From Mastigias papua (Eukaryota > Cnidaria > Scyphozoa > Rhizostomeae > Mastigiidae): a stretch of DNA of 64,000 nucleotides. The notes beneath the pieces are model-generated. The model saw only the letters and a list, made by a program, of their open reading frames with translations. It searched no databases and was not told where the DNA came from. This document shows, piece by piece, positions 1-53,335 of this stretch (position 1 is its first letter; each line of letters starts with the position of its first letter). The position numbers were made by a program, and so were the translations under genes. The stretch lies in contig OZ025277.1 in the NCBI GenBank assembly GCA_964019165.1, positions 7,972,889 through 8,036,888 of the forward strand. The letters are read 5' to 3'.

Positions 1-354
1 CTTTGGCTACGCTAAGGGAGTATTATAGCAAGCTGTTTCAAGCATTGTACTTTACTGTATGTATAGTGGTAAATGTGGGAAAAACTGGAACACTTTAAAA
101 TTTGTATCTAAAGTTAGGTCAAATTTGCAATACTTTCAATATGTAATATAATGGAATTGATGTTGTATAATGGCAACAGAAAATGAAATTTTACTCAAAA
201 TTTTGAAATTGGCTACACTTAGTGAGTATTATAGAAAGCTTTTTCAAGCATTGTATTTTACTGTATGTATAGTGGCAAATGTGGGAAAAATTCGAACGCT
301 TTCAAATTTGTATCTAAAGTTAGGTCAAATGTGCAATACTTTCAATTTGTAATA

Positions 355-3300
355 TAATGGAATGGAGGTTGGATAGTGGCAACAGAAAATTAGATTTTAC
401 TCAAACTTGTGACATTGGCGACACTTAGGGAGTATTATAGAAAGCTTTTTCAAGCATTGTACGTTACTGTATGTATAGTGGCAAATGTGGGAAAAATTGA
501 AACACTTTAAAATTTGTATCTAAAGTTAGGTGAAATTTGCAATACTTTCAATATGTAATATAATGGAATTGAAGTTGTATAGTGGCAACAGGAAGTGAAA
601 TTTTACTCGAAATTTTGACTTTGGCTACGCTAAGGGAGTATTATAGCAAGCTTTTTCAAGCATTGTACTTTACTGTATGTATAGTGGCAAATGTGGGAAC
701 AATTGGAACACTTTCAAATTTGTATCTAAACGTAGGTCAAGTTTGCAATACTTTCAATATGTAATATAATGGAATTGAAGATGTATAGTGGCAACAGGAA
801 ATGAAATTTTACTCGAGATTTTGACTTTGGCTACGCTAAGGGAGTATTATAGCAAGCTTTGTCAAGCATTGTACTTTACTGTATGTATAGTGGCAAATGT
901 GGGAACAATTGGAACACTTAAAAATTTGTGTCTAAAATTAGGTCAAATTTGCAATACTTTCAATTTGTAATATAATGGAATGGAGGTTGGATAGTGGCAA
1001 CAGAAAATTAGAGTTTACTCAAACTTGTGACATTGGCTACACTTAGGGAGTATTATAGCAAGCTTTTTCAAGCATTGTACTTTACTGTATGTATGGTGGC
1101 AAATGTGGGAAAAATTGGAACACTTTAAAATTTGTATCTAAAGTTAGGTCAAATTTGCAATACTTTCAATATGTAATATAATGGAATTGAAGTTGTATAG
1201 TGGCAACAGGAAGTGAAATTTTACACGAAATTTTGACTTTGGCTACGCTAAGGGAGTATTATAGCAAGCTTTTTCAAGCATTGTACTTTACTGTATGTAT
1301 AGTGGCAAATGTGGGAACAATTGGAACACTTTAAAATTTGTATCTAAAATTAGGTCAAGTTTGCAATACTTTCAATTTGTAATATAATGGAATTGAAGAT
1401 GTATAGTGGCAACAGGAAATGAAATTTTACTCGAGATTTTGACTTTGGCTACGCTAAGGGAGTATTATAGCAAGCTTTGTCAAGCATTGTACTTTACTGT
1501 ATGTATGGTGGCAAATGTGGGAAAAATTGGAACACTTTAAAATTTGTATCTAAAGTTAGGTCAAATTTGCACTACTTTCAATATGTAATATAATGGAATT
1601 GAAGTTGTATAGTGGCAACAGGAAGTGAAATTTTACACGAAATTTTGACTTTGGCTACGCTAAGGGAGTATTATAGCAAGCTTTTTCAAGCATTGTACTT
1701 TACTGTATGTATAGTGGCAAATGTGGGAACAATTGGAACACTTTAAAATTTGTATCTAAAATTAGGTCAAGTTTGCAATACTTTCAATATGTAATATAAT
1801 GGAATTGAAGATGTATAGTGGCAACAGGAAATGAAATTTTACTCGAGATTTTGACTTTGGCTACGCTAAGGGAGTATTATAGCAAGCTTTGTCAAGCATT
1901 GTACTTTACTGTATGTATAGTGGCAAATGTGGGAACAATTGGAGCACTTTAAAATTTGTGTCTAAAATTAGGTCAAATTTGCAATACTTTCAATTTGTAA
2001 TATAATGGAATAGAGGTTGGATAGTGGCAACAGAAAATTAGATTTTACTCAAACTTGTGACATTGGCGACACTTAGGGAGTATTATAGAAAGCTTTTTCA
2101 AGCATTGTACGTTACTGTATGTATAGTGGCAAATGTGGGAAAAATTGAAACACTTTAAAATTTGTATCTAAAGTTAGGTGAAATTTGCAATACTTTCAAT
2201 ATGTAATATAATGGAATTGAAGTTGTATAGTGGCAACAGGAAGTGAAATTTTACTCGAAATTTTGACTTTGGCTACGCTAAGGGAGTATTATAGCAAGCT
2301 TTTTCAAGCATTGTACTTTACTGTATGTATAGTGGCAAATGTGGGAACAATTGGAACACTTTCAAATTTGTATCTAAACGTAGGTCAAGTTTGCAATACT
2401 TTCAATATGTAATATAATGGAATTGAAGATGTATAGTGGCAACAGGAAATGAAATTTTACTCGAGATTTTGACTTTGGCTACGCTAAGGGAGTATTATAG
2501 CAAGCTTTGTCAAGCATTGTACTTTACTGTATGTATAGTGGCAAATGTGGGAACAATTGGAACACTTAAAAATTTGTGTCTAAAATTAGGTCAAATTTGC
2601 AATACTTTCAATTTTTAATATAATGGAATGGAGGTTGGATAGTGGCAACAAAAAATTAGAGTTTACTCAAACTTGTGACATTGGCTACACTTAGGGAGTA
2701 TTATAGCAAGCTTTTTCAAACATTGTACTTTACTGTATGTATGGTGGCAAATGTGGGAAAAATTGGAACACTTTAAAATTTGTATCTAAACGTTAGTCAA
2801 GTTTGCAATACTTTCAATATGTAATATAATGGAATTGAAGATGTATAGTGGCAACAGGAAATGAAATTTTACTCGAGATTTTGAATTTGGCTACGCTAAG
2901 GGAGTATTATAGCAAGCTTTGTCAAGCATTGTACTTTACTGTATGTATAGTGGCAAATGTGGGAACAATTGGAACACTTAAAAATTTGTGTCTAAAATTA
3001 GGTCAAATTTGCAATACTTTCAATTTGTAATATAATGGAATGGAGGTTGGATAGTGGCAACAGAAAATTAGAGTTTACTCAAACTTGTGACATTGGCTAC
3101 ACTTAGGGAGTATTATAGCAAGCTTTTTCAAGCATTGTACTTTACTGTATGTATGGTGGCACATGTGGGAAAAATTGGAACACTTTAAAATTTGTATCTA
3201 AAGTTAGGTCAAATTTGCAATACTTTCAATATGTAATATAATGGAATTGAAGTTGTATAGTGGCAACAGGAAGTGAAATTTTACACGAAATTTTGACTTT

Positions 3301-5300
3301 GGCTACGCTAAGGGAGTATTATAGCAATCTTTTTCAAGCATTGTACTTTACTGTATGTATAGTGGCAAATGTGGGAACAATTGGAACACTTTAAAATTTG
3401 TGTCTAAAATTAGGTCAAATTTGCAATACTTTCAATTTGTAATATAATGGAATGGAGGTTGGATAGTGGCAACAGAAAATTAGAGTTTACTCAAACTTGT
3501 GACATTGGCTACACTTAGGGAGTATTATAGCAAGCTTTTTCAAGCATTGTACTTTACTGTATGTATGGTGGCAAATGTGGGAAAAATAGGAACACTTTCA
3601 AATTTGTATCTAAACGTAGGTCAAGTTTGCAATACTTTCAATATGTAATATAATGGAATTGAAGATGTATAGTGGCAACAGGAAATGAAATTTTACTCGA
3701 GATTTTGAATTTGGCTACGCTAAGGGAGTATTATAGCAAGCTTTGTCAAGCATTGTACTTTACTGTATGTATAGTGGCAAATGTGGGAACAATTGGAACA
3801 CTTAAAAATTTGTGTCTAAAATTAGGTCAAATTTGCAATACTTTCAATTTGTAATATAATGGAATGGAGGTTGGATAGTGGCAACAGAAAATTAGAGTTT
3901 ACTCAAACTTGTGACATTGGTTACACTTAGGGAGTATTATAGCAAGCTTTTTCAAGCATTGTACTTTACTGTATGTATGGTGGCAAATGTGGGAAAAATT
4001 GGAACACTTTAAAATTTGTATCTAAAGTTAGGTCAAATTTGCAATACTTTCAATATGTAATATAATGGAATTGAAGTTGTATAGTGGCAACAGGAAGTGA
4101 AATTTTACACGAAATTTTGACTTTGGCTACGCTAAGGGAGTATTATAGCAAGCTTTTTCAAGCATTGTACTTTACTGTATGTATAGTAGCAAATGTGGGA
4201 ACAATTGGAACACTTTAAAATTTGTATCTAAAATTAGGTCAAGTTTGCAATACTTTCAATATGTAATATAATGGAATTGAAGATGTATAGTGGCAACAGG
4301 AAATGAAATTTTACTCGAGATTTTGACTTTGGCCACGCTAAGGGAGTATTATAGCAAGCTTTGTCAAGCATTGTACTTTACTGTATGTATAGTGGCAAAT
4401 GTGGGAACAATTGGAGCACTTTAAAATTTGTGTCTAAAATTAGGTCAAATTTGCAATACTTTCAATATGTAATATAATGGAATGGAGGTTGAATAGTGGC
4501 AACAGAAAATGAAAGTTTACTCACAAGATTGACATTGGCTACACTTAAAAAGTATTATAGCAAGCTTTTTCAAGCATTGTACTTTACTGTTTGTATAGTG
4601 GTAAATGTGGGAAAAATTGGATCACTTTAAAATTTGTATCTAAAATATGGTCAAATTTTCAATACTTTCAATATCTAATATAATGGAATGGAGGTTGAAT
4701 AGTGGCAACAGAAAATTAGATTTTACTCAAACTTGTGACATTGGCTACACTTAGGGTGTATTATAGCAAGTTTTGTCAAGCATTGTACTTTACTGTATGT
4801 ATAGTGGCAAATGTGGGACAAATTGGAACACTTTCAAATTTGTATCTAAAGTTAGGTCAAATGTGCAATACTTTCAATTTGTAATATAATGGAATGGAGG
4901 TTGGATAGTGGCAACAGAAAATTAGATTTTACTCAAACTTGTGACATTGGCGACACTTAGGGAGTATTATAGAAAGCTTTTTCAAGCATTGTACGTTACT
5001 GTATGTATAGTGGCAAATGTGGGAAAAATTGAAACACTTTAAAATTTGTATCTAAAGTTAGGTGAAATTTGCAATACTTTCAATATGTAATATAATGGAA
5101 TTGAAGTTGTATAGTGGCAACAGGAAGTGAAATTTTACTCGAAATTTTGACTTTGGCTACGCTAAGGGAGTATTATAGCAAGCTTTTTCAAGCATTGTAC
5201 TTTACTGTATGTATAGTGGCAAATGTGGGAAGAATTGGAACACTTTCAAATTTGTATCTAAACGTAGGTCAAATTTGCAATACATTCAATTTGTAATATA
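355..5300. repeat. 8-monomer higher-order repeat in satellite A
   Basis: A 1,648-bp block (8 x 206) recurs. The variant monomer with the word acattggcgacacttaggg is seen near 410, 2,060 and 4,950, and the monomers starting at 582 and 788 reappear nearly unchanged at 2,230 and 2,436. Neighbouring monomers differ more from each other than the same monomer does one block away, which is the signature of block-wise amplification by unequal exchange. Confidence 0.8.
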
Positions 5301-6112
5301 ATGGAATTGAAGTTGTATAGTGGCAAGAGAAAATGAAATTTTACTCAAAATATTGACATTGGCTACACTAAGGGATTATCATAGCTAGCTGTATCAAGCA
5401 TTGTACTTTACTGTATGTATAGTGGCAAATGTTTGATAAATTGCAAAACTTTACAATTTGTATCTAAAGTCAGGCCAAATTTGCAATACTTTCAATATGT
5501 AATATAATGGAATGTAGGTTATATAGTGGCAACAGAAAATGACATTTTACTCAAGATTTTGACATTGGTTACACTATGGGAGTATTATAGCAAGCTTTTT
5601 CAAGCATTGTACTTTACTGTATGTATGGTGGTAAATGTGGGAAAAATTGGAACACTTTAAAATTTGTATCTAAAGTTAGGTCAAATTTGCAATACATTCA
5701 ATGTGTAATATAATGGAATTGAAGTTGTATAGTGGCAACAGAAAATGAAATTTTACTCAAAATTTTGACATTGGCTACACTTAGGGAGTATTATAGCAAG
5801 CTTTGTCAAGAATTGTACTTTACTGTATGTATAGTGCCATATGTGGGAAAACTTGGAACACTTTAAAATTTGTATATAAAGTTAGGTCAAATTTGTACTA
5901 CTTTCATTGTGTAATATAATGGAATGGAGGTTGTATAGTGGCAACAGAAAATTAGATTTTACTCAAACTTGTGACATTGGCTACACTTAGGGAGTATTAT
6001 AGCAAGCTTTTTCAAGGAGTGTACTTTACTGTATGTATAGTGGCAAATGTGGGAAAAATTTGAACACTTTAAAATTTGTATCTAAAGTCAGGTCAAATTT
6101 GCAATACTTTCA

Positions 6113-6268
6113 ATAAGTATTATATATTGGAGATGACGTTGCGTATTCGTTTGAAGTAGAAATTTTGTATACATTGTATCCCTGATGTTGAGGTAAGAAG
6201 CTTGCCTCGTGCTTTTGCTGACAATGGCGATCTAACTTCGTGTGTACTGCTCTCTCAATAGTTTTATC
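6113..6268. repeat. ~156-bp non-satellite block inside a monomer, copy 1
   Basis: The monomer is interrupted after caatactttcaata by sequence unrelated to the satellite, containing gagatgacgttgcgtattcg and ctaacttcgtgtgtactgct, and the satellite resumes at tataatggaatggagg. The same block occurs at 14,091-14,246 with only a few differences. No terminal inverted repeat or clear target duplication was found. It may be an old insertion carried along as the array expanded. Confidence 0.8.
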
Positions 6269-6279
6269 AATATAATGGA

Positions 6280-9200
6280 ATGGAGGTTGGATAGTGGCAA
6301 CAGAAAATGAAATTTTACTCAAAATTGTGACATTGGCTACACTTAGGGAGTATCATAGCAGGCTTTTCAAGCATTGTACTTTACTGTATGTATAGTGGCA
6401 AATGTGGGAAAAATTGTAAAACTTTAGAATTTGTATCTAAAGTCAGGTCAACTTTGCAATACTGTGAATATATAATATAATGGAATGGAGGTTGGATAGT
6501 GGCAACAGAAAATTAAATTTTACTAAAAATTGTGACATTGGCTACACTAAGGGATTATCATAGCTAGCTGTATCAAGCATTGTACTGTACTCTATGTATA
6601 GTGGCAAATGTGGGATAAATTGCAAAACTTTACAATTTGTATCTAAAGTCAGGCCAAATTTGCAATACGTTCAATATGTAATTTAATGGAATTGAAGTTG
6701 TATAGTGGCAACAGAAAATTAAATTTTACTCAAGAATTTTGACATTGGCTACACTTAAGGAGTATTATAGCAAGATTTGTCAAGCATTGTACTTTACTGT
6801 TTGTATAGTGCCATATGTGGCAAAAATTGGAACACTTTAAAATTTGTATCTAAAGTTAGGTCAAAGTTGCAATACTTTCAATATGTAATATAATGGAATT
6901 GAAGTTGTATAGTGGCAACAGAAAATGAAATTTTACTCAAAATTTTGACATTGGCTACACTTAGGGAGTATCATAGCAGGCTTTTCAAGCATTGTACTTT
7001 ACTGTATGTATAGTGGCAAATGTGGGAAAAATTGTAAAACTTTAGAATTTGTATATAAAGTCAGGTCAACTTTGCAATACTGTGAATATATAATATAATG
7101 GAATGGAGGTTGGATAGTGGCAACAGAAAAGTAAATTTTACTAAATATTGTGACATTGGCTACACTAAGGGATTATCATGGCTAGCTGTATCAAGCATTG
7201 TACTTTACTGTATGTATAGTGGCAAATGTGGGATAAATTGCAAAACTTTACAATTTGTATCTAAAGTCAGGCAAAATTTGCAATACTTTCAATATGTAAT
7301 ATAATGGAAAGGAGGTTGTATAGTGGCAACAGAAAATTAAAGTTTACTTAAAATTTTGACATTGGCTACACTTAGGGAGTATTATAGCAAGCTTTTTCAA
7401 GCATTGTACTTTACTGTATGTATAGTGCCATATGTGGGAAAACTTGGAACACTTTAAAATTTGTATATAAAGTTAGGTCAAATTTGTACTACTTTCATTG
7501 TGTAATATAATGGAATGGAGGTTGGATAGTGGCAACAGAAAATTAGATTTTACTCAAACTTGTGACATTGGCTACACTTTGGGAGTATTATAGCAAGCTC
7601 TTTCAAGTATTGTACTTTACTGTATGTATAGTGGCAAATGTGGGAAAACTTGGAACACTTTAAAATTTGTATCTAAAGTTAGGTCAAATTTGCAATACTT
7701 GCAATATGTAATATAATGGAATTGAAGTTGTATAGTGGCAAGAGCAAATGAAAGTTTACTCAAAATATTGACATTGGCTACACATAGGGAGTATTATAGC
7801 AAGCTTGTTCAAGCATTGTACTTTACTGTTTGTATAGTGGTAAATGTGGGAAAAATTGGAACACTTTAAAATTTGTATCTAAAGTTAGGTCAAATTTGCA
7901 ATACGTTCAATATGTAATTTAATGGAATTGAAGGTGTATAGTGGCAACAGAAAATTAAATTTTACTCAAAAATTTTGACTTTGGCTACACTTAAGGAGCA
8001 TTATAGCAAGATTTTTCAAGCATTGTACTTTACTGTGTGTATAGTGCCATATGTGGCAAAAATTGGAACACTTTAACATTTGTATCTAAAGGTAGGTCAA
8101 AGTTGCAATACTTTCAATATGTAATATAATGCAATTGAAGTTGTATAGTGGCAACAGACAATGACATTTTACTCAAAATTTTGACATTAGCTACACTTAG
8201 GGAGTATCATAGCAAGCTTTTTCAAGCATTGTACTTTACTGTATGTATAGTGGCAAATGTGGGAAAAATTGCAAAACTTTAGAATTTGTATCTAAAGTCA
8301 GGTCAAATTTGGAATACTGTGAATATATAATATAATGTAATGGAGGTTGGATAGTGGCAACAGAAAATTAAATTTTACTAAAAATTGTGACAGTGGCCAC
8401 ACTAAGGGATTATCATAGCTAGCTGTATCAAGCATTGTACTTTACTGTATGTATAGTGGCAAATGTGGGATAAATTGCAAAACTTTACAATTTGTATCTA
8501 AAGTCAGGCCAAATTTGCAATACTTTCACTATGTAATATAATCGACTGGAGGTTGTATAGTGGCAACAGAAAATTAAAGTTTACTTAAAATTTTGACATT
8601 GGCTACACTTAGGGAGTATTATAGCAAGCTTTTTCAAGCATTGTACTTTACTGTATGTAAAGTGGTAAATGTGTGAAAAATTGGAACACTTTAAAATTTG
8701 TATCTAAAGTTAGGTCAAATTTGCAATACTTTTAATATGTAATATAATGGAATTGAAGTTGTATAGTGGCAACAGAAAATGAAATTTTACTAAAATTTTG
8801 ACATTGGCTACACTTAGGGAGTATCATAGCAGGCTTTTCAAGCATTGTACTTTACTGTATGTATAGTGGCAAATGTGGGAAAAATTGTAAAACTTTAGAA
8901 TTTGTATCTAAAGTCAGGTCAACTTTGCAATACTGTGAATATATAATATAATGGAATGGAGGTTGGATAGTGGCAACAGAAAAGTAAATTTTACTAAATA
9001 TTGTGACATTGGCTACACTAAGGGATTATCATGGCTAGCTGTATCAAGCATTGTACTTTACTGTATGTATAGTGGCAAATGTGGGATAAATTGCAAAACT
9101 TTACAATTTGTATCTAAAGTCAGGCAAAATTTGCAATACTTTCAATATGTAATATAATGGAAAGGAGGTTGTATAGTGGCAACAGAAAATTAAAGTTTAC

Positions 9201-12200
9201 TTAAAATTTTGACATTGGCTACACTTAGGGAGTATTATAGCAAGCTTTTTCAAGCATTGTACTTTACTGTATGTATAGTGCCATATGTGGGAAAACTTGG
9301 AACACTTTAAAATTTGTATATAAAGTTAGGTCAAATTTGTACTACTTTCATTGTGTAATATAATGGAATGGAGGTTGGATAGTGGCAACAGAAAATTAGA
9401 TTTTACTCAAACTTGTGACATTGGCTACACTTTGGGAGTATTATAGCAAGCTCTTTCAAGTATTGTACTTTACTGTATGTATAGTGGCAAATGTGGGAAA
9501 ACTTGGAACACTTTAAAATTTGTATCTAAAGTTAGGTCAAATTTGCAATACTTGCAATATGTAATATAATGGAATTGAAGTTGTATAGTGGCAAGAGCAA
9601 ATGAAAGTTTACTCAAAATATTGACATTGGCTACACATAGGGAGTATTATAGCAAGCTTGTTCAAGCATTGTACTTTACTGTTTGTATAGTGGTAAATGT
9701 GGGAAAAATTGGAACACTTTAAAATTTGTATCTAAAGTTAGGTCAAATTTGCAATACGTTCAATATGTAATTTAATGGAATTGAAGGTGTATAGTGGCAA
9801 CAGAAAATTAAATTTTACTCAAAAATTTTGACTTTGGCTACACTTAAGGAGCATTATAGCAAGATTTTTCAAGCATTGTACTTTACTGTTTGTATAGTGC
9901 CATATGTGGCAAAAATTGGAACACTTTAACATTTGTATCTAAAGGTAGGTCAAAGTTGCAATACTTTCAATATGTAATATAATGCAATTGAAGTTGTATA
10001 GTGGCAACAGACAATGACATTTTACTCAAAATTTTGACATTAGCTACACTTAGGGAGTATCATAGCAAGCTTTTTCAAGCATTGTACTTTACTGTATGTA
10101 TAGTGGCAAATGTGGGAAAAATTGCAAAACTTTAGAATTTGTATCTAAAGTCAGGTCAAATTTGGAATACTGTGAATATATAATATAATGTAATGGAGGT
10201 TGGATAGTGGCAACAGAAAATTAAATTTTACTAAAAATTGTGACAGTGGCCACACTAAGGGATTATCATAGCTAGCTGTATCAAGCATTGTACTTTACTG
10301 TATGTATAGTGGCAAATGTGGGAAAAATTGCAAAACTTTAGAATTTGTATCTAAAGTCAGGTCAAATTTGGAATACTGTGAATATATAATATAATGTAAT
10401 GGAGGTTGGATAGTGGCAACAGAAAATTAAATTTTACTAAAAATTGTGACAGTGGCCACACTAAGGGATTATCATAGCTAGCTGTATCAAGCATTGTACT
10501 TTACTGTATGTATAGTGGCAAATGTGGGATAAATTGCAAAACTTTACAATTTGTATCTAAAGTCAGGCCAAATTTGCAATACTTTCACTATGTAATATAA
10601 TCGACTGGAGGTTGTATAGTGGCAACAGAAAATTAAAGTTTACTTAAAATTTTGACATTGGCTACACTTAGGGAGTATTATAGCAAGCTTTTTCAAGCAT
10701 TGTACTTTACTGTATGTAAAGTGGTAAATGTGTGAAAAATTGGAACACTTTAAAATTTGTATCTAAAGTTAGGTCAAATTTGCAATACTTTTAATATGTA
10801 ATATAATGGAATTGAAGTTGTATAGTGGCAACAGAAAATGAAATTTTACTAAAATTTTGACATTGGCTACACTTAGGGAGTATCATAGCAGGCTTTTCAA
10901 GCATTGTACTTTACTGTATGTATAGTGGCAAATGTGGGAAAAATTGTAAAACTTTAGAATTTGTATCTAAAGTCAGGTCAACTTTGCAATACTGTGAATA
11001 TATAATATAATGGAATGGAGGTTGGATAGTGGCAACAGAAAAGTAAATTTTACTAAATATTGTGACATTGGCTACACTAAGGGATTATCATGGCTAGCTG
11101 TATCAAGCATTGTACTTTACTGTATGTATAGTGGCAAATGTGGGATAAATTGCAAAACTTTACAATTTGTATCTAAAGTCAGGCAAAATTTGCAATACTT
11201 TCAATATGTAATATAATGGAAAGGAGGTTGTATAGTGGCAACAGAAAATTAAAGTTTACTTAAAATTTTGACATTGGCTACACTTAGGGAGTATTATAGC
11301 AAGCTTTTTCAAGCATTGTACTTTACTGTATGTATAGTGCCATATGTGGGAAAACTTGGAACACTTTAAAATTTGTATATAAAGTTAGGTCAAATTTGTA
11401 CTACTTTCATTGTGTAATATAATGGAATGGAGGTTGGATAGTGGCAACAGAAAATTAGATTTTACTCAAACTTGTGACATTGGCTACACTTTGGGAGTAT
11501 TATAGCAAGCTCTTTCAAGTATTGTACTTTACTGTATGTATAGTGGCAAATGTGGGAAAACTTGGAACACTTTAAAATTTGTATCTAAAGTTAGGTCAAA
11601 TTTGCAATACTTGCAATATGTAATATAATGGAATTGAAGTTGTATAGTGGCAAGAGCAAATGAAAGTTTACTCAAAATATTGACATTGGCTACACATAGG
11701 GAGTATTATAGCAAGCTTGTTCAAGCATTGTACTTTACTGTTTGTATAGTGGTAAATGTGGGAAAAATTGGAACACTTTAAAATTTGTATCTAAAGTTAG
11801 GTCAAATTTGCAATACGTTCAATATGTAATTTAATGGAATTGAAGGTGTATAGTGGCAACAGAAAATTAAATTTTACTCAAAAATTTTGACTTTGGCTAC
11901 ACTTAAGGAGCATTATAGCAAGATTTTTCAAGCATTGTACTTTACTGTGTGTATAGTGCCATATGTGGCAAAAATTGGAACACTTTAACATTTGTATCTA
12001 AAGGTAGGTCAAAGTTGCAATACTTTCAATATGTAATATAATGCAATTGAAGTTGTATAGTGGCAACAGACAATGACATTTTACTCAAAATTTTGACATT
12101 AGCTACACTTAGGGAGTATCATAGCAAGCTTTTTCAAGCATTGTACTTTACTGTATGTATAGTGGCAAATGTGGGAAAAATTGCAAAACTTTAGAATTTG

Positions 12201-12700
12201 TATCTAAAGTCAGGTCAAATTTGGAATACTGTGAATATATAATATAATGTAATGGAGGTTGGATAGTGGCAACAGAAAATTAAATTTTACTAAAAATTGT
12301 GACAGTGGCCACACTAAGGGATTATCATAGCTAGCTGTATCAAGCATTGTACTTTACTGTATGTATAGTGGCAAATGTGGGATAAATTGCAAAACTTTAC
12401 AATTTGTATCTAAAGTCAGGCCAAATTTGCAATACTTTCACTATGTAATATAATCGACTGGAGGTTGTATAGTGGCAACAGAAAATTAAAGTTTACTTAA
12501 AATTTTGACATTGGCTACACTTAGGGAGTATTATAGCAAGCTTTTTCAAGCATTGTACTTTACTGTATGTAAAGTGGTAAATGTGTGAAAAATTGGAACA
12601 CTTTAAAATTTGTATCTAAAGTTAGGTCAAATTTGCAATACTTTTAATATGTAATATAATGGAATTGAAGTTGTATAGTGGCAACAGAAAATGAAATTTT
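6280..12700. repeat. 9-monomer higher-order repeat (1,853 bp) in satellite A
   Basis: An almost identical 1,853-bp block of nine monomers repeats here. The same 68-codon frame starts at 7,098, 8,951 and 11,010. The last interval is 2,059 bp, that is 1,853 plus one extra monomer, explained by a local monomer duplication visible around 10,200-10,410. The high identity between blocks points to recent amplification. Confidence 0.85.
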
Positions 12701-14090
12701 ACTAAAATTTTGACATTGGCTACACTTAGGGAGTATTATAGCCAGCTTTTTCACGCATTGTACTTTACTGTATGTATAGTGCCATATTTGGGAAAAATTG
12801 GAACACTTTAAAATTTGTATATAAAGTTAGGTCAAATTTGTAATACTTTCATTGTGTAATATAATGGAATGGAGGTTGTATAGTGGCAACAGAAAATTAG
12901 ATTTTACTCAAACTTGTGACATTGGCTACACTTTGGGAGTATTATAGCAAGCTTTTTCAAGTATTGTACTTTACTGTATGTATAGTGGCAAATGTGGGAA
13001 AACTTGGAACACTTTAAAATTTGTATCTAAAGTTAGGTCAAATTTGCAATACTTGCAATATGTAATATAATGGAATTGAAGTTGTATAGTGGCAACAGCA
13101 CATGAAAGTTTACTCAAAAATATTCACATTGGCTACACATAGGGAGTATTATAGCAAGCTTGTTCAAGCATTGTACTTTACTGTTTGTATAGTGGTAAAT
13201 GTGGGAAAAATTGGAACACTTTAAAATTTGTATCTAAAGTTAGGTCAAATTTGCAATACGTTCAATATCTAATTTAATGGAATTGAAGTTGTATAGTGGC
13301 AACAGAAAATTAAATTTTACTGACAAATTTTGACATTGGCTACACTTAAGGAGTATTATAGCAAGATGTTTCAAGCATTATACTTTACTGTATGTATAGT
13401 GCCATATGTGGGAACGATTGGAACACTTTAAAATTTGTATCTAAAGTTAGCTCAAAGTTGCAATACTTGCAATATGTAATATAATGGAATTGAAGTTGTA
13501 TAGTGGCAACAGACAATGAAATTTTACTCAAAATGTTGACATTGGCTACACTCAGGGAGTATCATAGCAAGCTTTTTCAAGCATTGTACTTTACTGTATG
13601 TATAGTGGCAAATGTGGGAAAAATTGCAAAACTTTAGAATTTGTATCTAAAGTCAGGTCAAATTTGCAATACTGTGAATATGTAATATAATGGAATGGAG
13701 GTTGGATAGTGGCAACAGAAAATTAAATTTTACTAAAAAGTGTGACATTGGCTACACTAAGGGATTATCATAGCTAGCTGTATCAGGCATTGTACTTTAC
13801 TGTATATATAGTGGCAAATGTGGGATAAATTGCAAAACATTACAATTTGTATCTAAAATCAGGCCAAATTTGCAATACTTTCAATATGTAATATAATGGA
13901 ATGGAGGTTGTATAGTGGCAACAGAAAATTAAAGTTTACTTAAAATTTTGACATTGGCTACACTTAGGGAGTATTATAGCAAGCTTTTTCAAGCATTGTA
14001 CTTTACTCTATGTAAACTGGTAAATGTGGGAAAAATTGGAACACTTTAAAATTTGTATCTAAAGTCAGGTCAAATTTGCAATACTTTCAA

Positions 14091-14246
14091 TAAGTATTAT
14101 ATGTTGGAGATGACGTTGCGTATTCGTTTGAAGTAGAAATTTTGTATACATTGTATCCCTGATGTTGAGGTAATAAGCTTGCCTCGTGCTTTTGCTAACA
14201 ATGGCGATCTAACTTCGTGTGTACTGCTCTCTCAATAGTTTTATCA
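14091..14246. repeat. ~156-bp non-satellite block inside a monomer, copy 2
   Basis: Second copy of the block seen at 6,113, at the same place in the monomer and with the same junctions. The shared position implies a single original insertion followed by duplication, not two independent events. Confidence 0.8.
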
Positions 14247-16589
14247 ATATAATGGAATGGAGGTTGTATAGTGGCATCAGAAAATTAAATTTTACTCAAA
14301 ATTTTGATATTGGCTACACTTAGGGAGTATCATAGTTAGGGTTATCAAGCAGTGTACTTTACTGTATGTATAGTTGCAAATGTGGGAAAAATTGCAAAAC
14401 TTTAAAAGTTGTATCTAAAGTCAGGCCAAATGTGCCATACTTTTAATATGTAATATAATAGAATGGAGGTTGTATAGTGGCAGCAGAAAATTAAATTTTA
14501 CTCAGAATTTTGAGAATGGCTACATTAAGGGAGTATTAAAGCAAGCTTTTTCAAGCACTGCACTTTACTGTATGTATGGTGGCAAATGTGGGAAAAATTG
14601 CAAAACTTTACAATTGGTATCTAAAGTTAGGTCAAATTTGCAATACTTTCAATATATAATATAATGGAATTGAAGTTGTATAGTGGCAACAGAAAATGAA
14701 ATTTTACTCAAAATTTTGACTTTGGCTACGCGTAGGGAGTATTATAGCAAGCTTTTTCAAGGATTGTACTTTACGGTATGTATAGTGGCAAATGTGGGAA
14801 AAATTGCAAAACTTTACGATTTGTATCTAAAGTTAGGTCAAATTTGCAATACTTTCAATATATTATATATTGGAATTGAAGTTGTATAGTGGCAACAGAA
14901 AATGAAATTTTACTCAAAATTTTGACTTTGGCTACGCGTAGGGAGTATTATAGCAAGCTTTTTCAAGCATTGTACTTTACTGTATGTATAGTTGTAAATG
15001 TGGGAAAAATTAGTAGATTAACGTTGCTAGGCCGTTGTCAGCACAGTTCCCTTCTCTATTTCCCACACTTATCGTAGTTCCAATCCCCTTTCTATCTTCC
15101 TTCTGTCCATGCTGCATGCGTCTTCCTTCTTGGTTGCAAGAAAGTTTTTAGATCTACTGCCATCGGAACTGTTATTGTATGGTAAAGTAGTATAAAGCGG
15201 TATTCATATTGTACTGCAGTTGATTGTGATGATGCGGCATAAATCTATGTGATGTTTTCAGCTGTGTATTGTCTTTTGTCACGGCCTATCGGTCAGTCAT
15301 TGTGTGCCTTCGGCGCCAGCTTGGACATTTGACTTCCTGTAAGAAAAGCGCTTCACCCATCCGTCGGTCGAGATAGATGAGCCACAACCCAGACAATGAA
15401 TCTGACACTCATTGTGGCTATCCAGTACCGACTGCACATGTTCACTTTTCAAGATTCATCTTAACCATTCGCACTATTGGGCCCAACGTTCTGTACGGCC
15501 TAATTCGCAGAACTGCATTCCTCGCAAGATCCAATTTCGTAGCTGCTGCCACCGTTCCTGCCAACCCACCGAGTGTAAATACCCACATACCCAAGACCAA
15601 CTGCATGTCGTTAGCTCAGCCATGTCTGATATTCCATCATAGCCTACTAAGATTCCTGCATCTCGCTTAGTACACGTCAAACTTTATGGGTGAGTCAATC
15701 TACCTGAATTTTACCCCCCTTTACTTTTACCCCGATATGGCACGTTACCTTATCACTATTAGCACAAATGAACAAGCCACTGTATGATGATATATTTGCA
15801 CACACCTAGCAGCGTTGTATACATTAGTGACATGAGTTTATATGTCAAGTTAGCTATCAGAGACAGCAGTCCACTCTCCCATTGCGTTCTATATAGTTAT
15901 CGTTCGATGATTCCTACCTGAAGCTCCTTTTGCTTGGCCGAGAAGAGTTTGAGCTTACCAGCTACATGAGCCTGTTTTACTTATTGCCATATCACTACCT
16001 TCGTGTTCATTGTTCTGATATACTACCTTTACAGCTGCCTTATACTCGTTTGTTATATACCAGATATAGTAAATATCTAGATAATATTTATCCTCAGCCA
16101 TCTGTTTCTAGGATTTTACCCCTTAACATGCAAGTATACCTTTACCTGCTGCGCGATATCACTTAATTTGTTATTTCAATGCTTCTTTAGTTTATTAGCT
16201 AGCATTTGTTCTTAGCTATCAGTTTGGAGGACTTGTCCCCTCACTATGCACGTAGAGAGGAGGTCTCTGCTTGCTGCGCGATTTTACTTAATTCTTTCGT
16301 TCCATATTTCTTTCGTTTATTAGCTCGTATTGTTTTCAGCAATCACTTTCTAGGAACTTACCCCTCAATATGCACATATAGCTTTGCTTCCTGCGCGATG
16401 TCACTTGTTGCTCGGCTCCATGTTTCTTAGTTTATTACTAGTATTGTTGTCAGCAATCAGTTTCCTGGATTTTACCCCTCAACATATGCACAGAGAGATT
16501 TGCTTGCTGCGCGAGGTCGCTTAGTTCGTTAGCGCTTAATTTTTTTTTTCAGCTATCTTTTTCAAGGTTTTTTACCCCTCAACTGCCCA

Positions 16590-16824
16590 ATGGTTTGAAA
16601 GACAGTGACGCTGTGCTAGAATTTACAGAAAAATAAAACAGTGGAACAGAATGCCTTGCAACTGCAGATTGTGCAAAGTTATATTAAAGATTTAGGTTTT
16701 TTGGCTTAGTTCTGTATTTATATTCTCTTTTGTTTCTCTTTTTTGTCTCTTAGTTTTAGAGTTAGTTTAGGTTGGCCTTAATTAGCTTCCTTTTAGCTAT
16801 AAATACAGCCAACTGTAAATAAAT
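16590..16824 (+). pseudogene. 5'-truncated CR1-like LINE 3' end
   Basis: Conceptual translation of about 16,625-16,690, with a frame interruption, matches the extreme C-terminus of the LINE at 46.4-50.8 kb: a lysine-rich FxEKI stretch followed by a cysteine motif of the C-x-CRLCK type. It is followed by a T-rich 3' UTR resembling the one at 50.83-50.96 kb and then a trinucleotide tail. Only the tail end of the element was inserted, as is usual for incomplete target-primed reverse transcription. Confidence 0.65.
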
Positions 16825-16868
<44 letters not shown>

Positions 16869-16981
16869 ATGGTCATGGCGATAAAAGAGAAGAAGAAGAA
16901 GAAGAAGATGATTATGATCATGATCATGATGATGATTATGATGATGATTATGATGATGCTTATGATGATGATGATGATGAG
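16825..16981. repeat. GAT-rich microsatellite tail
   Basis: A run of GAT units, broken by short GAA and TTAT variants, directly follows the LINE 3' end. It is best read as the element's simple-repeat tail, later expanded. The long minus-strand isoleucine-rich ORF across it is an artefact of the repeat. Confidence 0.9.
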
Positions 16982-18714
16982 CACGCCCATATAGATTTGT
17001 TTGCTGCGCGATGTCACTAATTTGTTAGTCCTATACTTCTTTAGTTTATTAGCTAGTATTGTTTTTCAGGAATCAGTTTCAAAGAATTTACCCCCACAAC
17101 ATGCACATAGAGAATTGCTTGATGTGCAAGGCCGCTTACTTCATTAGTACTTATTTTTCCAGCTATCGGTTTCTAGGATTTTACCCCTCAACATACATAT
17201 AGAGATTGCCTGCTGCGCTATGTCGCGTACTTTGTTAGTTCTATACTTCTTTGGTTTCAGCAATCAGTTTCAAGACTTTATCCCACAATATGCACATATC
17301 GATTTGCTTGCTGCGCGATGTCGCTTTATTCTATAGTCCTATGCTTCTTTAGTTTATTACTAACACACACTTGTGGTCGCACTTAGCTTACATCGTACCC
17401 CCCCCCCCAGAGGCTTCCCCTCATTCGCATTTCCAGCCATTCCACACATTGTATCAGTTGTGCATTTTATTGTTATCTCCTTTATTTCTATACTTCCCCC
17501 CTCCCTCCCAGCATGTTCTGTTATTCGCATGAGCTATCTTCACATAGCCCTAATTTCCCTGGGCCCCAGCACTTATCTAGGGATTGTTTCATGCACTCCC
17601 TATTTTCCATCCCACCGCTTGCGCACTAGCTGGGCTGCGTTGATAATGCGTTCACTCTTTAGACCTTAGCTCATCATTGTCGGTTTATACTTGTTATTGT
17701 TGCTTTGTAATACAACTCGCCTTTACGCCTCTAAAGTATCCTTCGCAGGTCTCAGCTGGTAGTATTTTAGGTCATATAGTAGTAATGTATTTGGTTATCC
17801 TCCAGTAGTAATACTCTGTTTCAACTCACTTGTTCCTTGGGAATCCATTGTGAATATTGTGAATCTGAAAACAGTTCTGGTTTACTGCCCAGCAAGACTG
17901 GATTGCAGATCGCCTAACCAAGTTATATGTGCTACTACCTGAAGTCGGGTATCCTGAACTGATCAATCCTCACGTCTGTTCCCACCATTATCACAGGAGT
18001 GATGAGAGTCAGCTAGCCTGCCTCCCATCCCAATATACTGATCCTTAATTAACTCATTGTTCATCAGGACTACTTAACAAGGCAACATCTTCTATCAAAG
18101 CTGAGGATTTTGCCTAGCCACTCATGACAACTACTTCTGCGGGGACAGGACCACATAGCTGTCATCACTACAGAGGTGCAGCTCGCTGCAGACCTTTACC
18201 TTCACTACAACCGGCAATTCTACTCTGAAAGATCAAAGAGGGTTTAGTAGCACACCTCAGCAACTGTTGTGAGCCTATGAAGTTAAGACATCCACAGAAC
18301 AACATCAATGACCAGAGAATCTCCATTATTAACTTTGCGGGGACAGGACAGGACGGTTTGCGCATGTATACCTGGCAGACTTGTAACGCTTGGAGACAGC
18401 TCTTGAAAGTAGTATGCAAGGTGGCAGAAGCAGACTTTACGTTAAACATTCTTGTCATTAGCAAGTGACAGTAATTCGAAATTTAGTTATAGTCTTAATG
18501 CCTATTGTATTATGGTAGTCCTATAATTGGTAGCACCCCCCCCCCACTCATCTGACGGATTACACAGGCTCATATATAGTTCCAATGGAGTATGCAGGCT
18601 CATACATAGTTTTATCGCAGCTTGGAGCGTATCTTGGCGTATCTTGGCGGTTAGGCCACCAAATGTGGTGGCAGTATGCTACAACTTAGGCACTAATGTA
18701 CTTAGTATATATTC

Positions 18715-19640
18715 GTTCAGGGGAGAAAGTCACCCCCTGTGTGAACCAGTAGCTATGTTGAAGAGTTCAGCACCCGGGCAACCCGCAGGGGAGAAAGTCA
18801 CCCCCTGTGTGGACCTGGAAAAAACCCCGGGCAACCTGCAGGGAAGAAAGTCACCCCCTGTGTGGACCTGGAGAAACCTCCGGCCAACCCACAGGGGAGA
18901 AAGTCACCCCCTGTGTGGACCTGGGGAAACCTAGTGTGTTATAATATTACTCATCATAGCCCCCCAGGCAACCTGCAGGGGAGAAAGTCACCCCCTGTGT
19001 AGACCTGGGGAAACATAGTATGTTATAATATTACTCATCGTAGCACACCCAGGTAACCTGCAGGGGAGAAAGTCACCCCCTGTGTGGACCTGGAGAAACC
19101 CCCGGCCAACCTGCAGGGGAGAAAGTCACCCCCTGTGTGGACCTGGGGAAACCTAGTGCATTATAATATTACTCATCGTAGCACCCCAGGCAACCTGCAG
19201 GGGAGAAAGTCACCCCCTGTGCAGACCTGGGGAAGAGCTAGTGTGTTATAATATTACTCATCATAGCACCCCAGGCAACCTGCAGGGGAGAAAGTCACCC
19301 CCTGTGTAGACCTGGGGAAACATAGTATGTTATAATATTACTCATCGTAGCACACCCAGGTAACCTGCAGGGGAGAAAGTCACCCCCTGTGTGGACCTGG
19401 AGAAACCCCCGGCCAACCTGCAGGGGAGAAAGTCACCCCCTGTGTGGACCTGGGGAAACCTAGTACATTATAATATTACTCATCGTAGCACCCCAGGCAA
19501 CCTGCAGGGGAGAAAGTTACCCCCTGTGCAGACCTGGGGAAGACCTAGTGTGTTATAATATTACTCATCGTAGCACCCCAGGTAACCCACAGGGGAGAAA
19601 GTCACCCCCTGTGTGGATCTGGGAAAACCTAGTGCGTTTA
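18715..19640. repeat. Minisatellite with hairpin core caggggagaaagtcacc
   Basis: Thirteen copies of a core reading caggggagaaagtcacccc, followed by ctgtgtggacctgg, are arranged in a mixture of short (~52-bp) and long (~90-bp) units. The long units add a spacer with ttataatattactcatcgta. The core can fold on itself because CAGGGG and CCCCTG flank its centre. The short/long pattern recurs, so multi-unit blocks have been copied together. Confidence 0.9.
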
Positions 19641-19797
19641 CTATGACTATGTATCATTCATTCACTATTACATAACAGTTGAGCCAGATACGACCCCAAT
19701 AGCTGCCAAGTTCGTCTATTTCTTAGTTGTTACCACTCTATGCTGTTTATCACGCGCACCTAGGCCGCAGATGAGTTAATCGACGTTTACGGAGTAA

Positions 19798-20867
19798 ATG
19801 GAACACTTTAAAATTTGTATCTAAAGTTAGGTCAAATTTGCAATACTTTCAATATGTAATATAATGGAATTGAAGTTGTATAGTGGCAACAGAAAATGAA
19901 ATTTTACTCAAAATTTTGACATTGGCTACACTTAGGGAGTATTATAGCAAGCTTTTTCAAGCATTGTACTTTACTGTATGTATAGTGGCAAATGTGGGAA
20001 AAATTGCAAAACTTTACAATTTGTATCTAAAGTCAGGCCAAATCTGCAATACTTTCAATATGTAATATAATGGAATTGAAGTTGTATAGTGGCAACAGAA
20101 AATTAAATTTTACTCAAAATTTTGACATTGGCTACACTTAGGGAGTATTATAGCAAGCTTTTTCAAGCATTGTACTTTACTGTATGTACAGTGGCAAATG
20201 TGGGAAAAATTGCAAAACTTTAGAATTTGTTTCTAAAGTTAGGTCAAATTTGCAATACTTTCAATATTTTATATAATGGAATGGAGGTTGTATAGTGCCA
20301 ACAGAAAATTAAATTTTACTCAAAATTGTGACATTGGCTACACTAAGGGATTATCATAGCTAGCTGTATCAAGCATTGTACTTTACTGTATGTATAGTGG
20401 CAAATGTGGGAAAAATTGCAAAACTTTACAATTTGTATCGAAAGTTAGGTCAAATTTGCAATACTTTCAATATGTTATATAATGAAATGGAGGGTGTATA
20501 GTGGCAACAGAAAATTAAATTTTACTCAAAATTGTGACATTGGCTACACATAGGGAGTATTATAGCAAGCTTTTTCAAGCATTGTACTTTATTGTATGTA
20601 TAGTGGGAAATGTGGGAAAAATTGGAACACTTTAAATTTGTATCTAAAGTTAGGTCAAATTTGCAATACTTTCAATATGTAATATAATGGAATTGATGTT
20701 GTATAGTGGCAACAGAAAATTAAATTTTACTCGAGATGTTGACTTTGGCTACACTTAGGGAGTATTACAGCAAGCTTTTTCAAGCATTGTACGTTACTCT
20801 ATGCATTGTGGCAAGTGAGGGAAAAATTGCAAAATTTTACAATTTGTATCTAAAGTCGGTTGACACT
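19798..20867. repeat. Satellite A array, right-hand end
   Basis: About five further 206-bp monomers continue the array in the same orientation. The last one decays after position 20,840 and passes into a flank that begins agatgttgtatattgctgac, which is also found next to satellite monomers at about 63,040. Confidence 0.95.
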
Positions 20868-22250
20868 TGCATAGATGTTGTATATTGCTGACAGAAGGTG
20901 ATTTGAATAGAGGAGTGATTTGATTGATATTGAAAGCATTTTCAAGCTGTGTTGTGGCATTGAAGAATAGCATAGCGTATTGTTGAAGTACAACACTTAT
21001 GGGAGCTGGTACTGAACATAAGACTGTAAGGCATTTGTGAAAATGTTAAGGAAAATTAAGTTCAGTGAAGTTACCTCAAAGCCTCTATTTCATATGGACA
21101 ATAGTTTAAAAAGAATGATGTTTTAAATATGCCCTTGCTAGGGGCATATTTTCCCAAGGTTGCTGCCCACTCACTAAGTAAAGTGCAACTGGTATATAAG
21201 CTGGCAATGAAGATAACTTTTTGAGGCATTTGGCGAAATTTTGAGGAAAATTATGTTTTATAAAGTAACCTCATAGCACCTATCCCATATGGACAATAGT
21301 GCACAAACAACCATATATTCCCAGGTGTGCCACCTCCTAATTAGTGAGTTGCAACACTTATACAAGATGGTATTGGACATAACTTTTTGTGACATTTGTT
21401 AAAAGTTGTGAGTACTCTCTGTTCCTTAATAGTAGGGGGGTTTTGTTAAAAAGGGGATTGGCAATGTTTTCGGAAGAAATAAATGTAGAGGGTGTGAATA
21501 AATAGAAATGGATGGATTTTGTCATGCAGTACTTAGATAGGGGGGTTGTCAATAGGTGGGGGGGGGGTAAGATTAATTTTTGATAATTATTATTTTGTTC
21601 TATTTCTGGAAAAAACTTCTTGTGTTACTGAAAACTATACAATACTTCTATTTTCATTGTTTTTAGTTATTTTTTGAGGGGTGTCTAATAAATGGGAGTG
21701 GGTGGAAAGCTTTTTCTATGGAAATGGAAATGGAAATGGGTTCCAATATTGTAAAACTTTGGAGTAAAGGGGAATACTATTAATGGAGGTACGGGGAGTA
21801 GAAGTATGTTTGATGAGTTCACTTGAGGTCATCTACATTAATGGCCTGAATAGCGTACAAACAAGCATAGAAGTATAAGGTTTGGGACTTTTTGTGAGGG
21901 AGTGCATTGATATCAGCTGTGAAGTTATCGGGTTTTTTACCAAAACAGATGAAGCCTAGACAATGATACTATAGGATCCCCTGCCTTGCCTCCATCCCAA
22001 TATTTTTGAGGCCAGCAGAATCGGCGCTAATTCAGGCGTTCCTGATAGGGTGGTCATAAAATATAATACTACGAGAGGTTGCATGCAGCTTTGTCTTTCT
22101 AGTCTTTCTAACCTGAACACTGTTATACTCCCCACTGTAGGAAAGAACCCAAATTTCTAAATGTGTCGTCGAATGTGAACCTGCTACGGAATCTGCTTTG
22201 AACTGTTCTGCTTTCAATTTACAGTTTACAAAGTGACCCTCTTTTCCCCT
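20868..22250. mobile_element. 3' flank of satellite-bearing element, copy A
   Basis: This non-coding stretch matches 63,040-63,970 over most of its length (shared words include gagtactctctgttccttaa, agaaataaatgtagagggtg and ccccactgtaggaaagaacc), and its last ~200 bp also matches 42,840-43,040. Between about 20,985 and 21,400 it carries two diverged monomers of satellite B in inverted orientation, missing from copy C. Together with the adjoining satellite A array it forms the right end of one member of the three-copy family. Confidence 0.75.
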
Positions 22251-39694: not shown

Positions 39695-40345
39695 GAGCTG
39701 AAACGGTATCCTTGACCACGTTTTCTGGAATGTTATCTATCCTATTGAGACACATGTGATAAAAATTGCAGCGCGTTGGAAATCTGTTTAAGGGTAATAC
39801 ATACAACACAAATAATCTAAAAAAATAATCAAAGAGATATGCAAATGAAAAAAGAAAAACTGTGGGTATTGCCATGAAGCTGAAACGTGCAAGAAATAAA
39901 ATGAGGGTAGTGTAGAAAATTCAAATGAGGCTTTTGGAGGATGTGCATTTTCCTACATCCTGTGCAACTTAACTTGAGAGGTATATTACAATGATGTAGA
40001 ATCATCCCAGGATGGAATGAGAAGCTCCTAAATCAACTTTTAGACCACACTGAACGGGGATTCTAACCCAGGTACAAACGGTAAAATCTGTAATCAAGGA
40101 TCAATGTGCATCAAGCAATTCTTAAAGCCTACCAATGACATAGGAATGAAACAACATATGACTGACAATTTTTACAAAGAAAGCCTTTTCTAGTCCAAGG
40201 GCCATTAGTACTTGAAAAAATATTTTCTATTTCATGAGTAAGTATCTGAGCAATACTTTGGCAACTCACAAGAACCTTTTTAAATGGCCTCTTTCCATTC
40301 CCCACCTTGCTCATTTTGTCTCCACTTGGAAGCACTCCAGCGTAG
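39695..40345. other. Non-coding interval upstream of the 2A LINE
   Basis: The first part may be 5' leader of the LINE; its boundary cannot be seen. No gene or repeat is recognised. Confidence 0.5.
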
Positions 40346-40820
40346 CAAGATGGAAAAATGTTTAAGCTCAAAATGGCGGCAGTAACTGCGAAGGCGCTCC
40401 GTAAAGCGAAGACAGAAACACGCCATGTCAGATAAGGACAGTACTGCAAGACGGTTATTTAAATGGTCTTTTATTACCCTTTCACACAGAAATGTTATCG
40501 ATGTTGTGCACGTACTCATACGGAAGTCAATTACCGCCCGATCTCAATGATAGGTAACAGTACAACCTACTCTTACTATGCTACGCTACTGTGTACTGTC
40601 CCACCGAACCTTCATTCACTTTTCATTTAGAGCCACTGGCTGGAAACATCGCTGTTTCCAACAGAAATATGATCAATGCAAACATATACCATGTAGGCAC
40701 CTATATAAACATCGATTTAAACGATTAACCTTCATCCTCCACTTATTTTTACTACTCCAATCACAATCACATCTCGTGGTTTAAGAGCCATGAACGCATA
40801 CTCTACAGTATACCTGTGAG
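40346..40820. mobile_element. 5' flank of satellite-bearing element, copy B
   Basis: Matches 61,990-62,465 over its length (gatggaaaaatgtttaag, ctgcgaaggcgctc, gataggtaacagtacaacct, catcgctgtttccaacagaa, actccaatcacaatcacatc). Non-coding. The match begins near gatggaaaaatg on both sides, which probably marks the element's outer edge. Confidence 0.85.
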
Positions 40821-42815: not shown

Positions 42816-43080
42816 TGTCTAGGCAATAGCGGCCCTAATTCAGGCGGTCCTGATAGGGTGGTCATAAAATAAAATACTGCGAGAGATTTCATGCAGCTTT
42901 GTCCTTCTAGTCGTTCTAATCTGAACACCGTTATAATCCCCACTTTAGGAAAGGATCCAAAGGTCTAAATGTACGTCGAATGTGAACCTGTTACGGATCG
43001 CCGAATCTTCTTTGAAGTGTTCTGCTTTCAATTGATAAATGATAGGCAAGAAAATACTAAAGCAAAAATGGTAACGACAG
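42816..43080. mobile_element. 3' flank of satellite-bearing element, copy B
   Basis: The region from about 42,830 matches 22,020-22,220 and 63,780-63,990 (gataggGTGGTCATAAAATA, ccactttaggaaaggatcc, cgaatgtgaacctg). The match to copy C continues to at least atactaaagcaa, whereas copy A diverges earlier. Confidence 0.8.
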
Positions 43081-43239
43081 TAATAGGCTCTAACAATCCA
43101 GTTTCAAAGAACACAATAGAGCAACTGGCCAAGCTTGCTTGGAAAATGTTATCTATGTCAATATGGTGCCTGTTGTCAAGTGAGGTTGATAGCCGTATCC
43201 ATGAAGTGCGCTGCGCATTTTTTGCGCATGTCAAATACA

Positions 43240-53271: not shown

Positions 53272-53328
<57 letters not shown>

Positions 53329-53329: not shown

Positions 53330-53335
53330 TTACAA

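What the first reader, a model, noticed from the sequence alone, without database searches (positions are those of the whole stretch)
19798..22250. A dispersed element family that carries satellite arrays inside it
Three loci share a 3' flank (ends near 22,220, 43,040 and 63,990), and two show the same 5' flank (40,346-40,820 and 61,990-62,465). Between the flanks lie tandem monomers: thousands of bases of satellite A in copy A, ~2 kb of satellite B in copy B, and three satellite A monomers in copy C. This parallels bivalve pearl-type and Helentron-related elements that hold internal tandem repeats, but the flanks here show no known termini that I recognise. The large array may be an expanded interior of such an element.
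Basis: partly seen in the sequence, partly recalled or inferred. Interest (0 to 1): 0.85.

Follow-up and report, generated by a model that had tools for sequence, protein, structure and literature searches.

The report
Jumping gene carrying satellite DNA arrays
One copy here is a complete, apparently protein-less DNA transposon with recognisable ends and an insertion scar whose interior is largely tandem satellite repeats, and a related copy's interior appears to have grown into a satellite array of at least 15 kb; this resembles known cases in flies and bivalves.

Summary
Copy B (40344-43254, 2911 bp) is bounded by perfect 18-bp terminal inverted repeats and a 9-bp target-site duplication, CTCCAGCGT. 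It is therefore a TIR DNA transposon without an ORF of 150 aa, not a Helentron/pearl element. Copy C has the same left terminus (61990, 16 of 18 TIR bases); its right end lies beyond the window. Copy A keeps the right part but breaks off at about 22221, without a TIR. Copy B's array is two opposed arrays, about 3 forward and 7 inverted monomers, forming a 1.15-kb palindrome. Satellites A (206 bp) and B (197 bp) are diverged versions of one monomer. Inverted monomer remnants in A and C are B-like, so both satellites occupy one element design. Array A (about 77 monomers seen) stays in phase across a 4.8-kb insertion and meets the 3' part at the junction seen in compact copy C, so an expanded transposon interior is the best reading. 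Genome copies and empty sites could not be examined: the genome search did not complete. The kind is known (Tetris; oyster Cg_HINE); this looks like a new member with an unusual layout.

The parts
40344..43254 (+). Copy B: complete element, 2911 bp, bounded by 18-bp perfect TIRs; no stop-to-stop ORF of 150 aa or more inside
   Evidence: ORF list (smaller ORFs not examined)
40335..40343 (+). Left target-site duplication CTCCAGCGT
43255..43263 (+). Right target-site duplication CTCCAGCGT
40344..40361 (+). Left TIR of copy B, AGCAAGATGGAAAAATGT
43237..43254 (-). Right TIR of copy B (perfect inverse of the left TIR)
40362..40817 (+). Left unique part of copy B, shared with copy C, no similarity to the monomers above shuffles
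40818..41400 (+). Forward satellite-B array, 3.0 monomers of 197 bp
41411..42812 (-). Inverted satellite-B array, 7.1 monomers of 197 bp; with the forward array forms a 1.15-kb palindrome
42830..43236 (+). Right unique part of copy B; the first 205-240 bp shared with A and C
61990..64000 (+). Copy C, left-complete: TIR AACAGGATGGAAAAATGT (16 of 18 as in B), left part, satellite-A monomers, 3' part; runs off the window
62483..63043 (+). Satellite-A array of copy C (2.7 monomers of 206 bp)
63105..63165 (-). 61-bp stub of an inverted B-type monomer in copy C
3..15011 (+). Satellite-A array of copy A, first part (reaches the window start); higher-order repeat of 9-10 monomers at about 7134-12900
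6132..6268 (.). Short insertion in a monomer, similar phase and nearly the same sequence as 14102-14245
14102..14245 (.). Second copy of the same short insertion, about 7.97 kb downstream: suggests that the array segment was duplicated after the insertion
15012..19795 (.). 4.78-kb insertion interrupting array A; monomer phase 106 before, 103 after
19796..20856 (+). Satellite-A array of copy A, last part (5.1 monomers)
20984..21412 (-). Decayed inverted B-type monomers in copy A (0.77-0.90 identity to a B monomer)
21413..22021 (+). Unique 3' segment shared by A and C (90.7%), not found in B
22022..22221 (+). Conserved 3' segment shared by A, B and C; A breaks off here with no TIR

Best explanation
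The three loci belong to one family of non-autonomous TIR DNA transposons with a 9-bp TSD, probably moved in trans by a transposase of the Mutator/MULE type. The interior carries opposed tandem arrays of a ~200-bp monomer between unrelated left and right parts. Shown: termini and TSD of copy B, left terminus of copy C, common junctions, opposed arrays, homology of satellites A and B, repeated segments inside array A. Inferred: the arrays grow and shrink by unequal exchange or replication slippage; the left arm diverged to the A type in the A/C subfamily; in copy A that arm expanded to more than 75 monomers and now looks like an ordinary satellite; the transposase superfamily.
For: 18-bp perfect TIR and 9-bp TSD exactly at the ends of copy B; a scan for exact TIRs of 12 or more within 8 kb with TSD of 7 or more gave 2 pairs in the window and 1 in all of 20 dinucleotide shuffles; a scan with shorter seed (10) and longer TSD (8 or more) gave the same 2 pairs and 0 in 10 shuffles. 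B/C similarity begins at the TIR: first 200 bp inside score 108.5 (200 shuffles, max 15.0), 200 bp upstream 11.5 (mean 11.6, max 22.5). Same 5' array junction in B and C, same 3' array junction in A and C. A and B monomers align at 39.5 vs 200 shuffles with mean 13.6, max 22. Inverted remnants in A and C score higher to B than to A, 4 of 4 pieces. Array A is phase-continuous across its insertions, has higher-order repeats and a short insertion carried by two segments. No ORF of 150 aa or more in copy B.
Against: Only one copy has both ends in view (TSD n=1). No transposase, no genome-wide copies and no empty site were seen. Copy A has neither terminus in the window. C-specific base states are scattered through array A and not confined to its right edge: at 9 sites the 4 terminal full monomers share 3, 4, 7 and 0, the other 68 average 2.34 with maximum 7, so the array's history is more complex than a frozen edge. 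The first 45 bases of C's array score only slightly better to B (32.0) than to A (26.0). A 6-bp-stem hairpin (TGCGCA, 43212-43228) lies 26 bp from B's right end, a feature also seen in Helentrons; but 132 of 1066 60-bp tiles of the window and 53 of 1000 shuffles of that end hold such a hairpin. A 9-bp TSD alone does not fix the superfamily.
Confidence: 0.82

Rival explanations
1. A Helentron/HINE (pearl-type) rolling-circle element with central repeats.
For: Satellite-like central repeats between conserved left and right modules, as in oyster Cg_HINE (PMC7492417, abstract and passages).
Against: Helentrons/HINEs make no target-site change, carry subterminal repeats and insert into T-rich sites (PMC4067079 passages). 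Copy B has terminal repeats and a 9-bp TSD, CTCCAGCGT. The hairpin is of a sort found in 132 of 1066 tiles of the window.
Confidence: 0.05
2. An independent satellite (A) into which, or next to which, element fragments came to lie; the A array is not an expanded interior, and compact copies captured monomers from it.
For: Copy A shows no 5' flank or TIR in the window; C-like monomer states occur across the array. Capture of a pre-existing tandem repeat has been proposed for the Xenopus MITE miDNA4 (reported in PMC12628747 passages).
Against: The array/3'-part junction of A and C is the same in phase and sequence; B and C share the left part and the start of the first monomer; A- and B-type monomers are homologous and both occur in one element.
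Confidence: 0.2
3. The copies spread by segmental duplication or recombination, not by transposition.
For: A is truncated; C's right end is unseen.
Against: Similarity between B and C stops at the TIR, with nothing above shuffles in the 200 bp upstream; B has a TSD.
Confidence: 0.04
4. A P-superfamily (Galileo-like) or hAT-type non-autonomous element, not Mutator (a variant of the best explanation that differs only in the transposase).
For: Galileo's F group has internal tandem repeats of about 210 bp, and Galileo TIRs can be as short as 18 bp (PMC3573991 passages).
Against: Most Galileo copies there are flanked by 7-bp duplications; copy B has 9 bp. 8-bp TSDs are typical of hAT and P (recalled).
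Confidence: 0.25

Closest known systems
Tetris (Drosophila virilis foldback element; PMC4079207, abstract and passages seen)
   Same: Non-autonomous TIR element, 8-10 bp TSD, ~220-bp internal tandem repeats within its TIRs (hence in two opposed sets), seeds kb-size satellite arrays; assigned by its authors to Mutator on TSD size and earlier suggestions.
   Different: Tetris has long TIRs (up to 1,735 bp) with an inverted flanking domain; here only 18 bp are inverted and the left and right parts are unrelated. Here two diverged monomer types occupy the same design.
Tm1 (Mutator/Foldback family of root-knot nematodes; PMC3169594, abstract and passages seen)
   Same: Mostly 9-bp TSD, composite ends with variable tandem repeats, non-autonomous forms.
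   Different: Repeats are ~14 bp within the TIR; an element encoding a MULE-like transposase is known there, none here.
Galileo (Drosophila; PMC3573991, passages seen)
   Same: In the F group, internal tandem repeats of ~210 bp that vary in number; TIR length from 18 bp to 1,250 bp.
   Different: 7-bp TSD, P superfamily; 0, 2 or 3 repeat copies, no large arrays in the passages I saw.
Cg_HINE / pearl (oyster Helentrons; PMC7492417, abstract and passages seen)
   Same: Flank modules with satellite-like central repeats; related flanks with related but distinct repeats.
   Different: Rolling-circle superfamily that makes no TSD; no opposed arrays mentioned in the passages I saw.
miDNA4 (Xenopus Tc1/mariner MITE with internal satellite; known to me only through the review PMC12628747, passages)
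   Same: A MITE with a variable number of internal satellite monomers that may give rise to long arrays.
   Different: Tc1/mariner type; opposed arrays not mentioned in the passages I saw.

Membership tests
TIR (cut-and-paste) DNA transposon | Terminal inverted repeats at both ends | tested here: met
   Copy B, 18 of 18 bp; copy C left end 16 of 18; A has none, C right end unseen
TIR (cut-and-paste) DNA transposon | Target-site duplication | tested here: met
   9 bp at copy B only, n=1; constancy of length not testable
Mutator/MULE superfamily | 8-10 bp (mostly 9) TSD | tested here: met
   9 bp; size range per PMC3169594 and PMC4079207
Mutator/MULE superfamily | MULE transposase, in the element or in an autonomous partner with the same TIR | tested here: inconclusive
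   Pfam scan of 10 of the 13 ORFs of 150 aa or more in the window gave mostly retroelement domains, no MULE transposase; the genome could not be searched
Foldback elements (Tetris type) | Tandem repeats in two opposed sets | tested here: met
   Copy B about 3 forward + 7 inverted monomers; inverted remnants in A and C
Foldback elements (Tetris type) | Long TIRs including an inverted flanking domain | tested here: not met
   Only the outer 17-18 bp of left and right parts are inverted copies
Helentron/HINE (pearl) | No target-site modification | tested here: not met
   9-bp TSD
Helentron/HINE (pearl) | Insertion in T-rich site; inverted repeats subterminal | tested here: not met
   Site CTCCAGCGT; the repeats are terminal
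Helentron/HINE (pearl) | Short palindrome near the 3' end | tested here: inconclusive
   A 6-bp-stem hairpin 26 bp from the right end, but common by chance
MITE (strict) | Short (usually under 600 bp), non-coding, TIR and TSD | tested here: not met
   No ORF of 150 aa, TIR and TSD present, but 2911 bp; length criterion as cited in PMC3573991
Galileo / P superfamily | 7-bp TSD of Galileo | tested here: not met
   9 bp; 7 bp per PMC3573991
Retrozyme (hammerhead tandem repeats) | Hammerhead ribozyme in the monomer | tested here: not met
   No Rfam family at gathering score in the window; weaker matches not searched

The most novel reading that the evidence does not exclude
The element is a satellite nursery: opposed internal arrays inside a mobile TIR element keep exchanging and re-amplifying monomers, so one transposon family repeatedly generates new satellites in the same slot (B in one subfamily, A in another) and scatters them as seeds, one of which has grown into a full satellite array.
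Probability: 0.3. Interest if true: 0.62.

Novelty: new member of a known kind. Interest (0 to 1): 0.42.

Why it matters
It shows in one 64-kb stretch what may be stages of one process: a compact transposon with under three monomers (C), one with about 10 opposed monomers and intact ends (B), and a relative whose interior is a satellite array over 15 kb long (A). If genome copies agree, it would be a clear case for asking how satellites are born inside transposons, with two diverged satellites from one slot as a natural replicate. The principle is already in print (Tetris, Cg_HINE, miDNA4).

Tried and rejected
Long TIRs: left and right parts of copy B share only 17-18 bp in inverse orientation at their ends. 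Flanks derived from monomers: no score above the shuffle range for the left part, right part or A/C 3' segment (12 comparisons, 30 shuffles each). TIR motif inside monomers as extra transposase sites: weak only (10, 46, 8 and 6 of 200 shuffles reach the observed score). Mirror pairing of forward and inverted monomers, as a sign of one inverted duplication: unclear. Of the two mirror pairs with full monomers one is the most alike of all 18 forward-inverted pairs (0.990), the other middling (0.959); means are 0.953 forward-forward, 0.955 inverted-inverted, 0.952 forward-inverted. Edge monomers of array A as a frozen ancestral set: highest overall identity to C (best of 69 runs of 4 in list order, some runs spanning interruptions) but C-specific states are scattered, so only partly supported. 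Ribozyme-type tandem element: nothing in Rfam at gathering score. Right-end hairpin as a Helentron sign: no more than chance. Other copies in viral contigs and prokaryote genome contigs: 0 exact matches; weak evidence, because these collections are not expected to hold an animal-like genome.

Full report
Observation. Self-comparison confirms three loci with common parts. The 3' part is shared by A (to 22221), B and C; A and C agree at 90.5% of 887 positions, and B shares only about 205-240 bp with them. The 5' part is shared by B and C (76.6% of 518).

Termini. Copy B begins AGCAAGATGGAAAAATGT at 40344 and ends with its perfect inverse at 43254. CTCCAGCGT stands directly outside on both sides, at 40335-40343 and 43255-43263. 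A scan of the whole window for exact TIRs of 12 or more within 8 kb with TSDs of 7 or more gave two pairs: this one (18 and 9) and 47890-55394 (12 and 8), which spans a LINE ORF and is probably chance. Twenty dinucleotide shuffles gave one pair in all. A scan with a shorter seed (10) and longer TSD (8 or more) gave the same two real pairs and none in 10 shuffles. Copy C has AACAGGATGGAAAAATGT at 61990, 16 of 18 bases as in B. Similarity of B and C starts at this point: the first 200 bp inside score 108.5 (shuffle maximum 15.0), the 200 bp outside 11.5 (shuffle mean 11.6, maximum 22.5). Copy A has no TIR: its 3' part breaks off at about 22221, and the rest of B's right end has no other match in the window at E 0.01 beyond the TIR itself and a short extension into C.

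Interior of copy B. Three forward monomers (40818-41400) are followed by a 10-bp spacer and about seven inverted ones (41411-42812). The arms form a palindrome, 1148 aligned positions at 95.5%, predicted to fold as one long hairpin as single-stranded DNA (no shuffle control at that length). Forward and inverted monomers are on average as alike across arms (0.952) as within arms (0.953, 0.955), over 3 forward and 6 inverted monomers cut in phase; one of two full mirror pairs is the most alike of all 18 cross pairs (0.990), the other is not (0.959). Left and right parts are inverted copies of each other only over the outer 17-18 bp and do not resemble the monomers above shuffles. A 6-bp-stem hairpin lies 26 bp from the right end; such hairpins occur in 132 of 1066 tiles of the window.

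Interior of copies A and C. C has two nearly full and one partial satellite-A monomer, then a 61-bp inverted B-type stub. A has the same array/3'-part junction, then about 430 bp of decayed inverted B-type monomers (0.77-0.90 to a B monomer, lower scores to A), most of which C lacks. The first monomers of B and C both begin GAGGTGAYTTCATAAAAC; the first 45 bases of C's array score 32.0 to B and 26.0 to A, a modest difference. Satellites A and B are themselves homologous: local score 39.5, against mean 13.6, SD 2.4 and maximum 22 in 200 shuffles. So one element design (left part, forward monomers, inverted monomers, right part) fits all three copies, and the left arm differs between subfamilies.

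The large array. Satellite A fills the window from base 3 to 20856, with interruptions. At 15012-19795 a 4.78-kb insertion splits a monomer; phase is 106 before and 103 after, as expected of a later insertion into one array. A short insertion of about 140 bp occurs twice, at 6132 and 14102, at a similar phase and nearly identical, which suggests that array segments were duplicated after it arrived. Blocks of 9-10 monomers are repeated at 98% or more within about 7134-12900. About 77 monomer equivalents are visible by my arithmetic; 72 full ones have a mean pairwise identity of 0.895, range 0.83-1.00. The four full monomers nearest the 3' part are the best of 69 runs of four in identity to C (0.937 against 0.904 for the other 68), but C-specific states at 9 sites are scattered over the array, so this edge evidence is mixed.

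Mechanism. B was most likely inserted by a transposase that makes 9-bp TSDs; B has no ORF of 150 aa or more, so the enzyme would come from elsewhere. MULE-type is most likely by TSD size, as argued for Tetris and Tm1, but this is inference from one copy. Array growth by unequal exchange or slippage is inferred from higher-order repeats and the duplicated insertion; exchange between opposed arms is inferred from their equal identity.

Comparison. Helentron/pearl membership fails on the TSD. Strict foldback membership fails on the short TIR. It works like Tetris: a non-autonomous TIR element whose ~200-bp opposed repeats seed satellite arrays. Of the papers used I saw abstracts or passages only, none whole. 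In the listings of nine paper searches (titles and starts of abstracts, cut at 8 of 54 and 10 of 74) I saw no description of this family, which with an unnamed host is weak evidence for novelty.

Limits. The genome search did not complete (16 requests), so copy number, empty sites, autonomous partner and the left end of array A are untested.

Noticed in passing
15012-19795: 4.78-kb insertion inside array A with two minisatellite blocks of its own (about 16147-17360 and 18774-19640), little or no TSD (about 0-4 bp) and a short inverted match near its ends (GTAGATTAAC / GTCGATTAAC); type not determined.
   Followed up: partly
40370 and 62016: AAAATGGCGG, which resembles a YY1 site (recalled), sits just inside the left TIR of copies B and C and nowhere else in the window on either strand in exact form.
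   Followed up: no
51082-51689 and 61267-61874: Inverted pair of 87% identity; the ORF at 51277-51834 looks like a GIY-YIG (Penelope-type) endonuclease piece (recalled; no Pfam hit). The second copy ends about 115 bp left of copy C.
   Followed up: no
28670-29119 and 29765-30213: Direct repeat of 450 bp at 98% identity, 1.1 kb apart, near retroelement ORFs on the minus strand (24303-27891; RT, RNase H and integrase domains); possibly LTRs of a short element.
   Followed up: no
36557-39736 and 46390-50826: Long LINE ORFs (endonuclease + RT); the second has an upstream ORF with a GDSL-like domain.
   Followed up: partly
47890-55394: Second TIR/TSD pair in the scan (12 bp TIR, 8 bp GAGAGGAT); probably chance.
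   Followed up: no
57661-57696: Perfect 36-bp palindrome.
   Followed up: no
3-15011: Array A is strongly CpG-depleted (observed/expected 0.21, against 0.37 in copy B and 0.56 in copy C), perhaps from methylation decay (inference).
   Followed up: no
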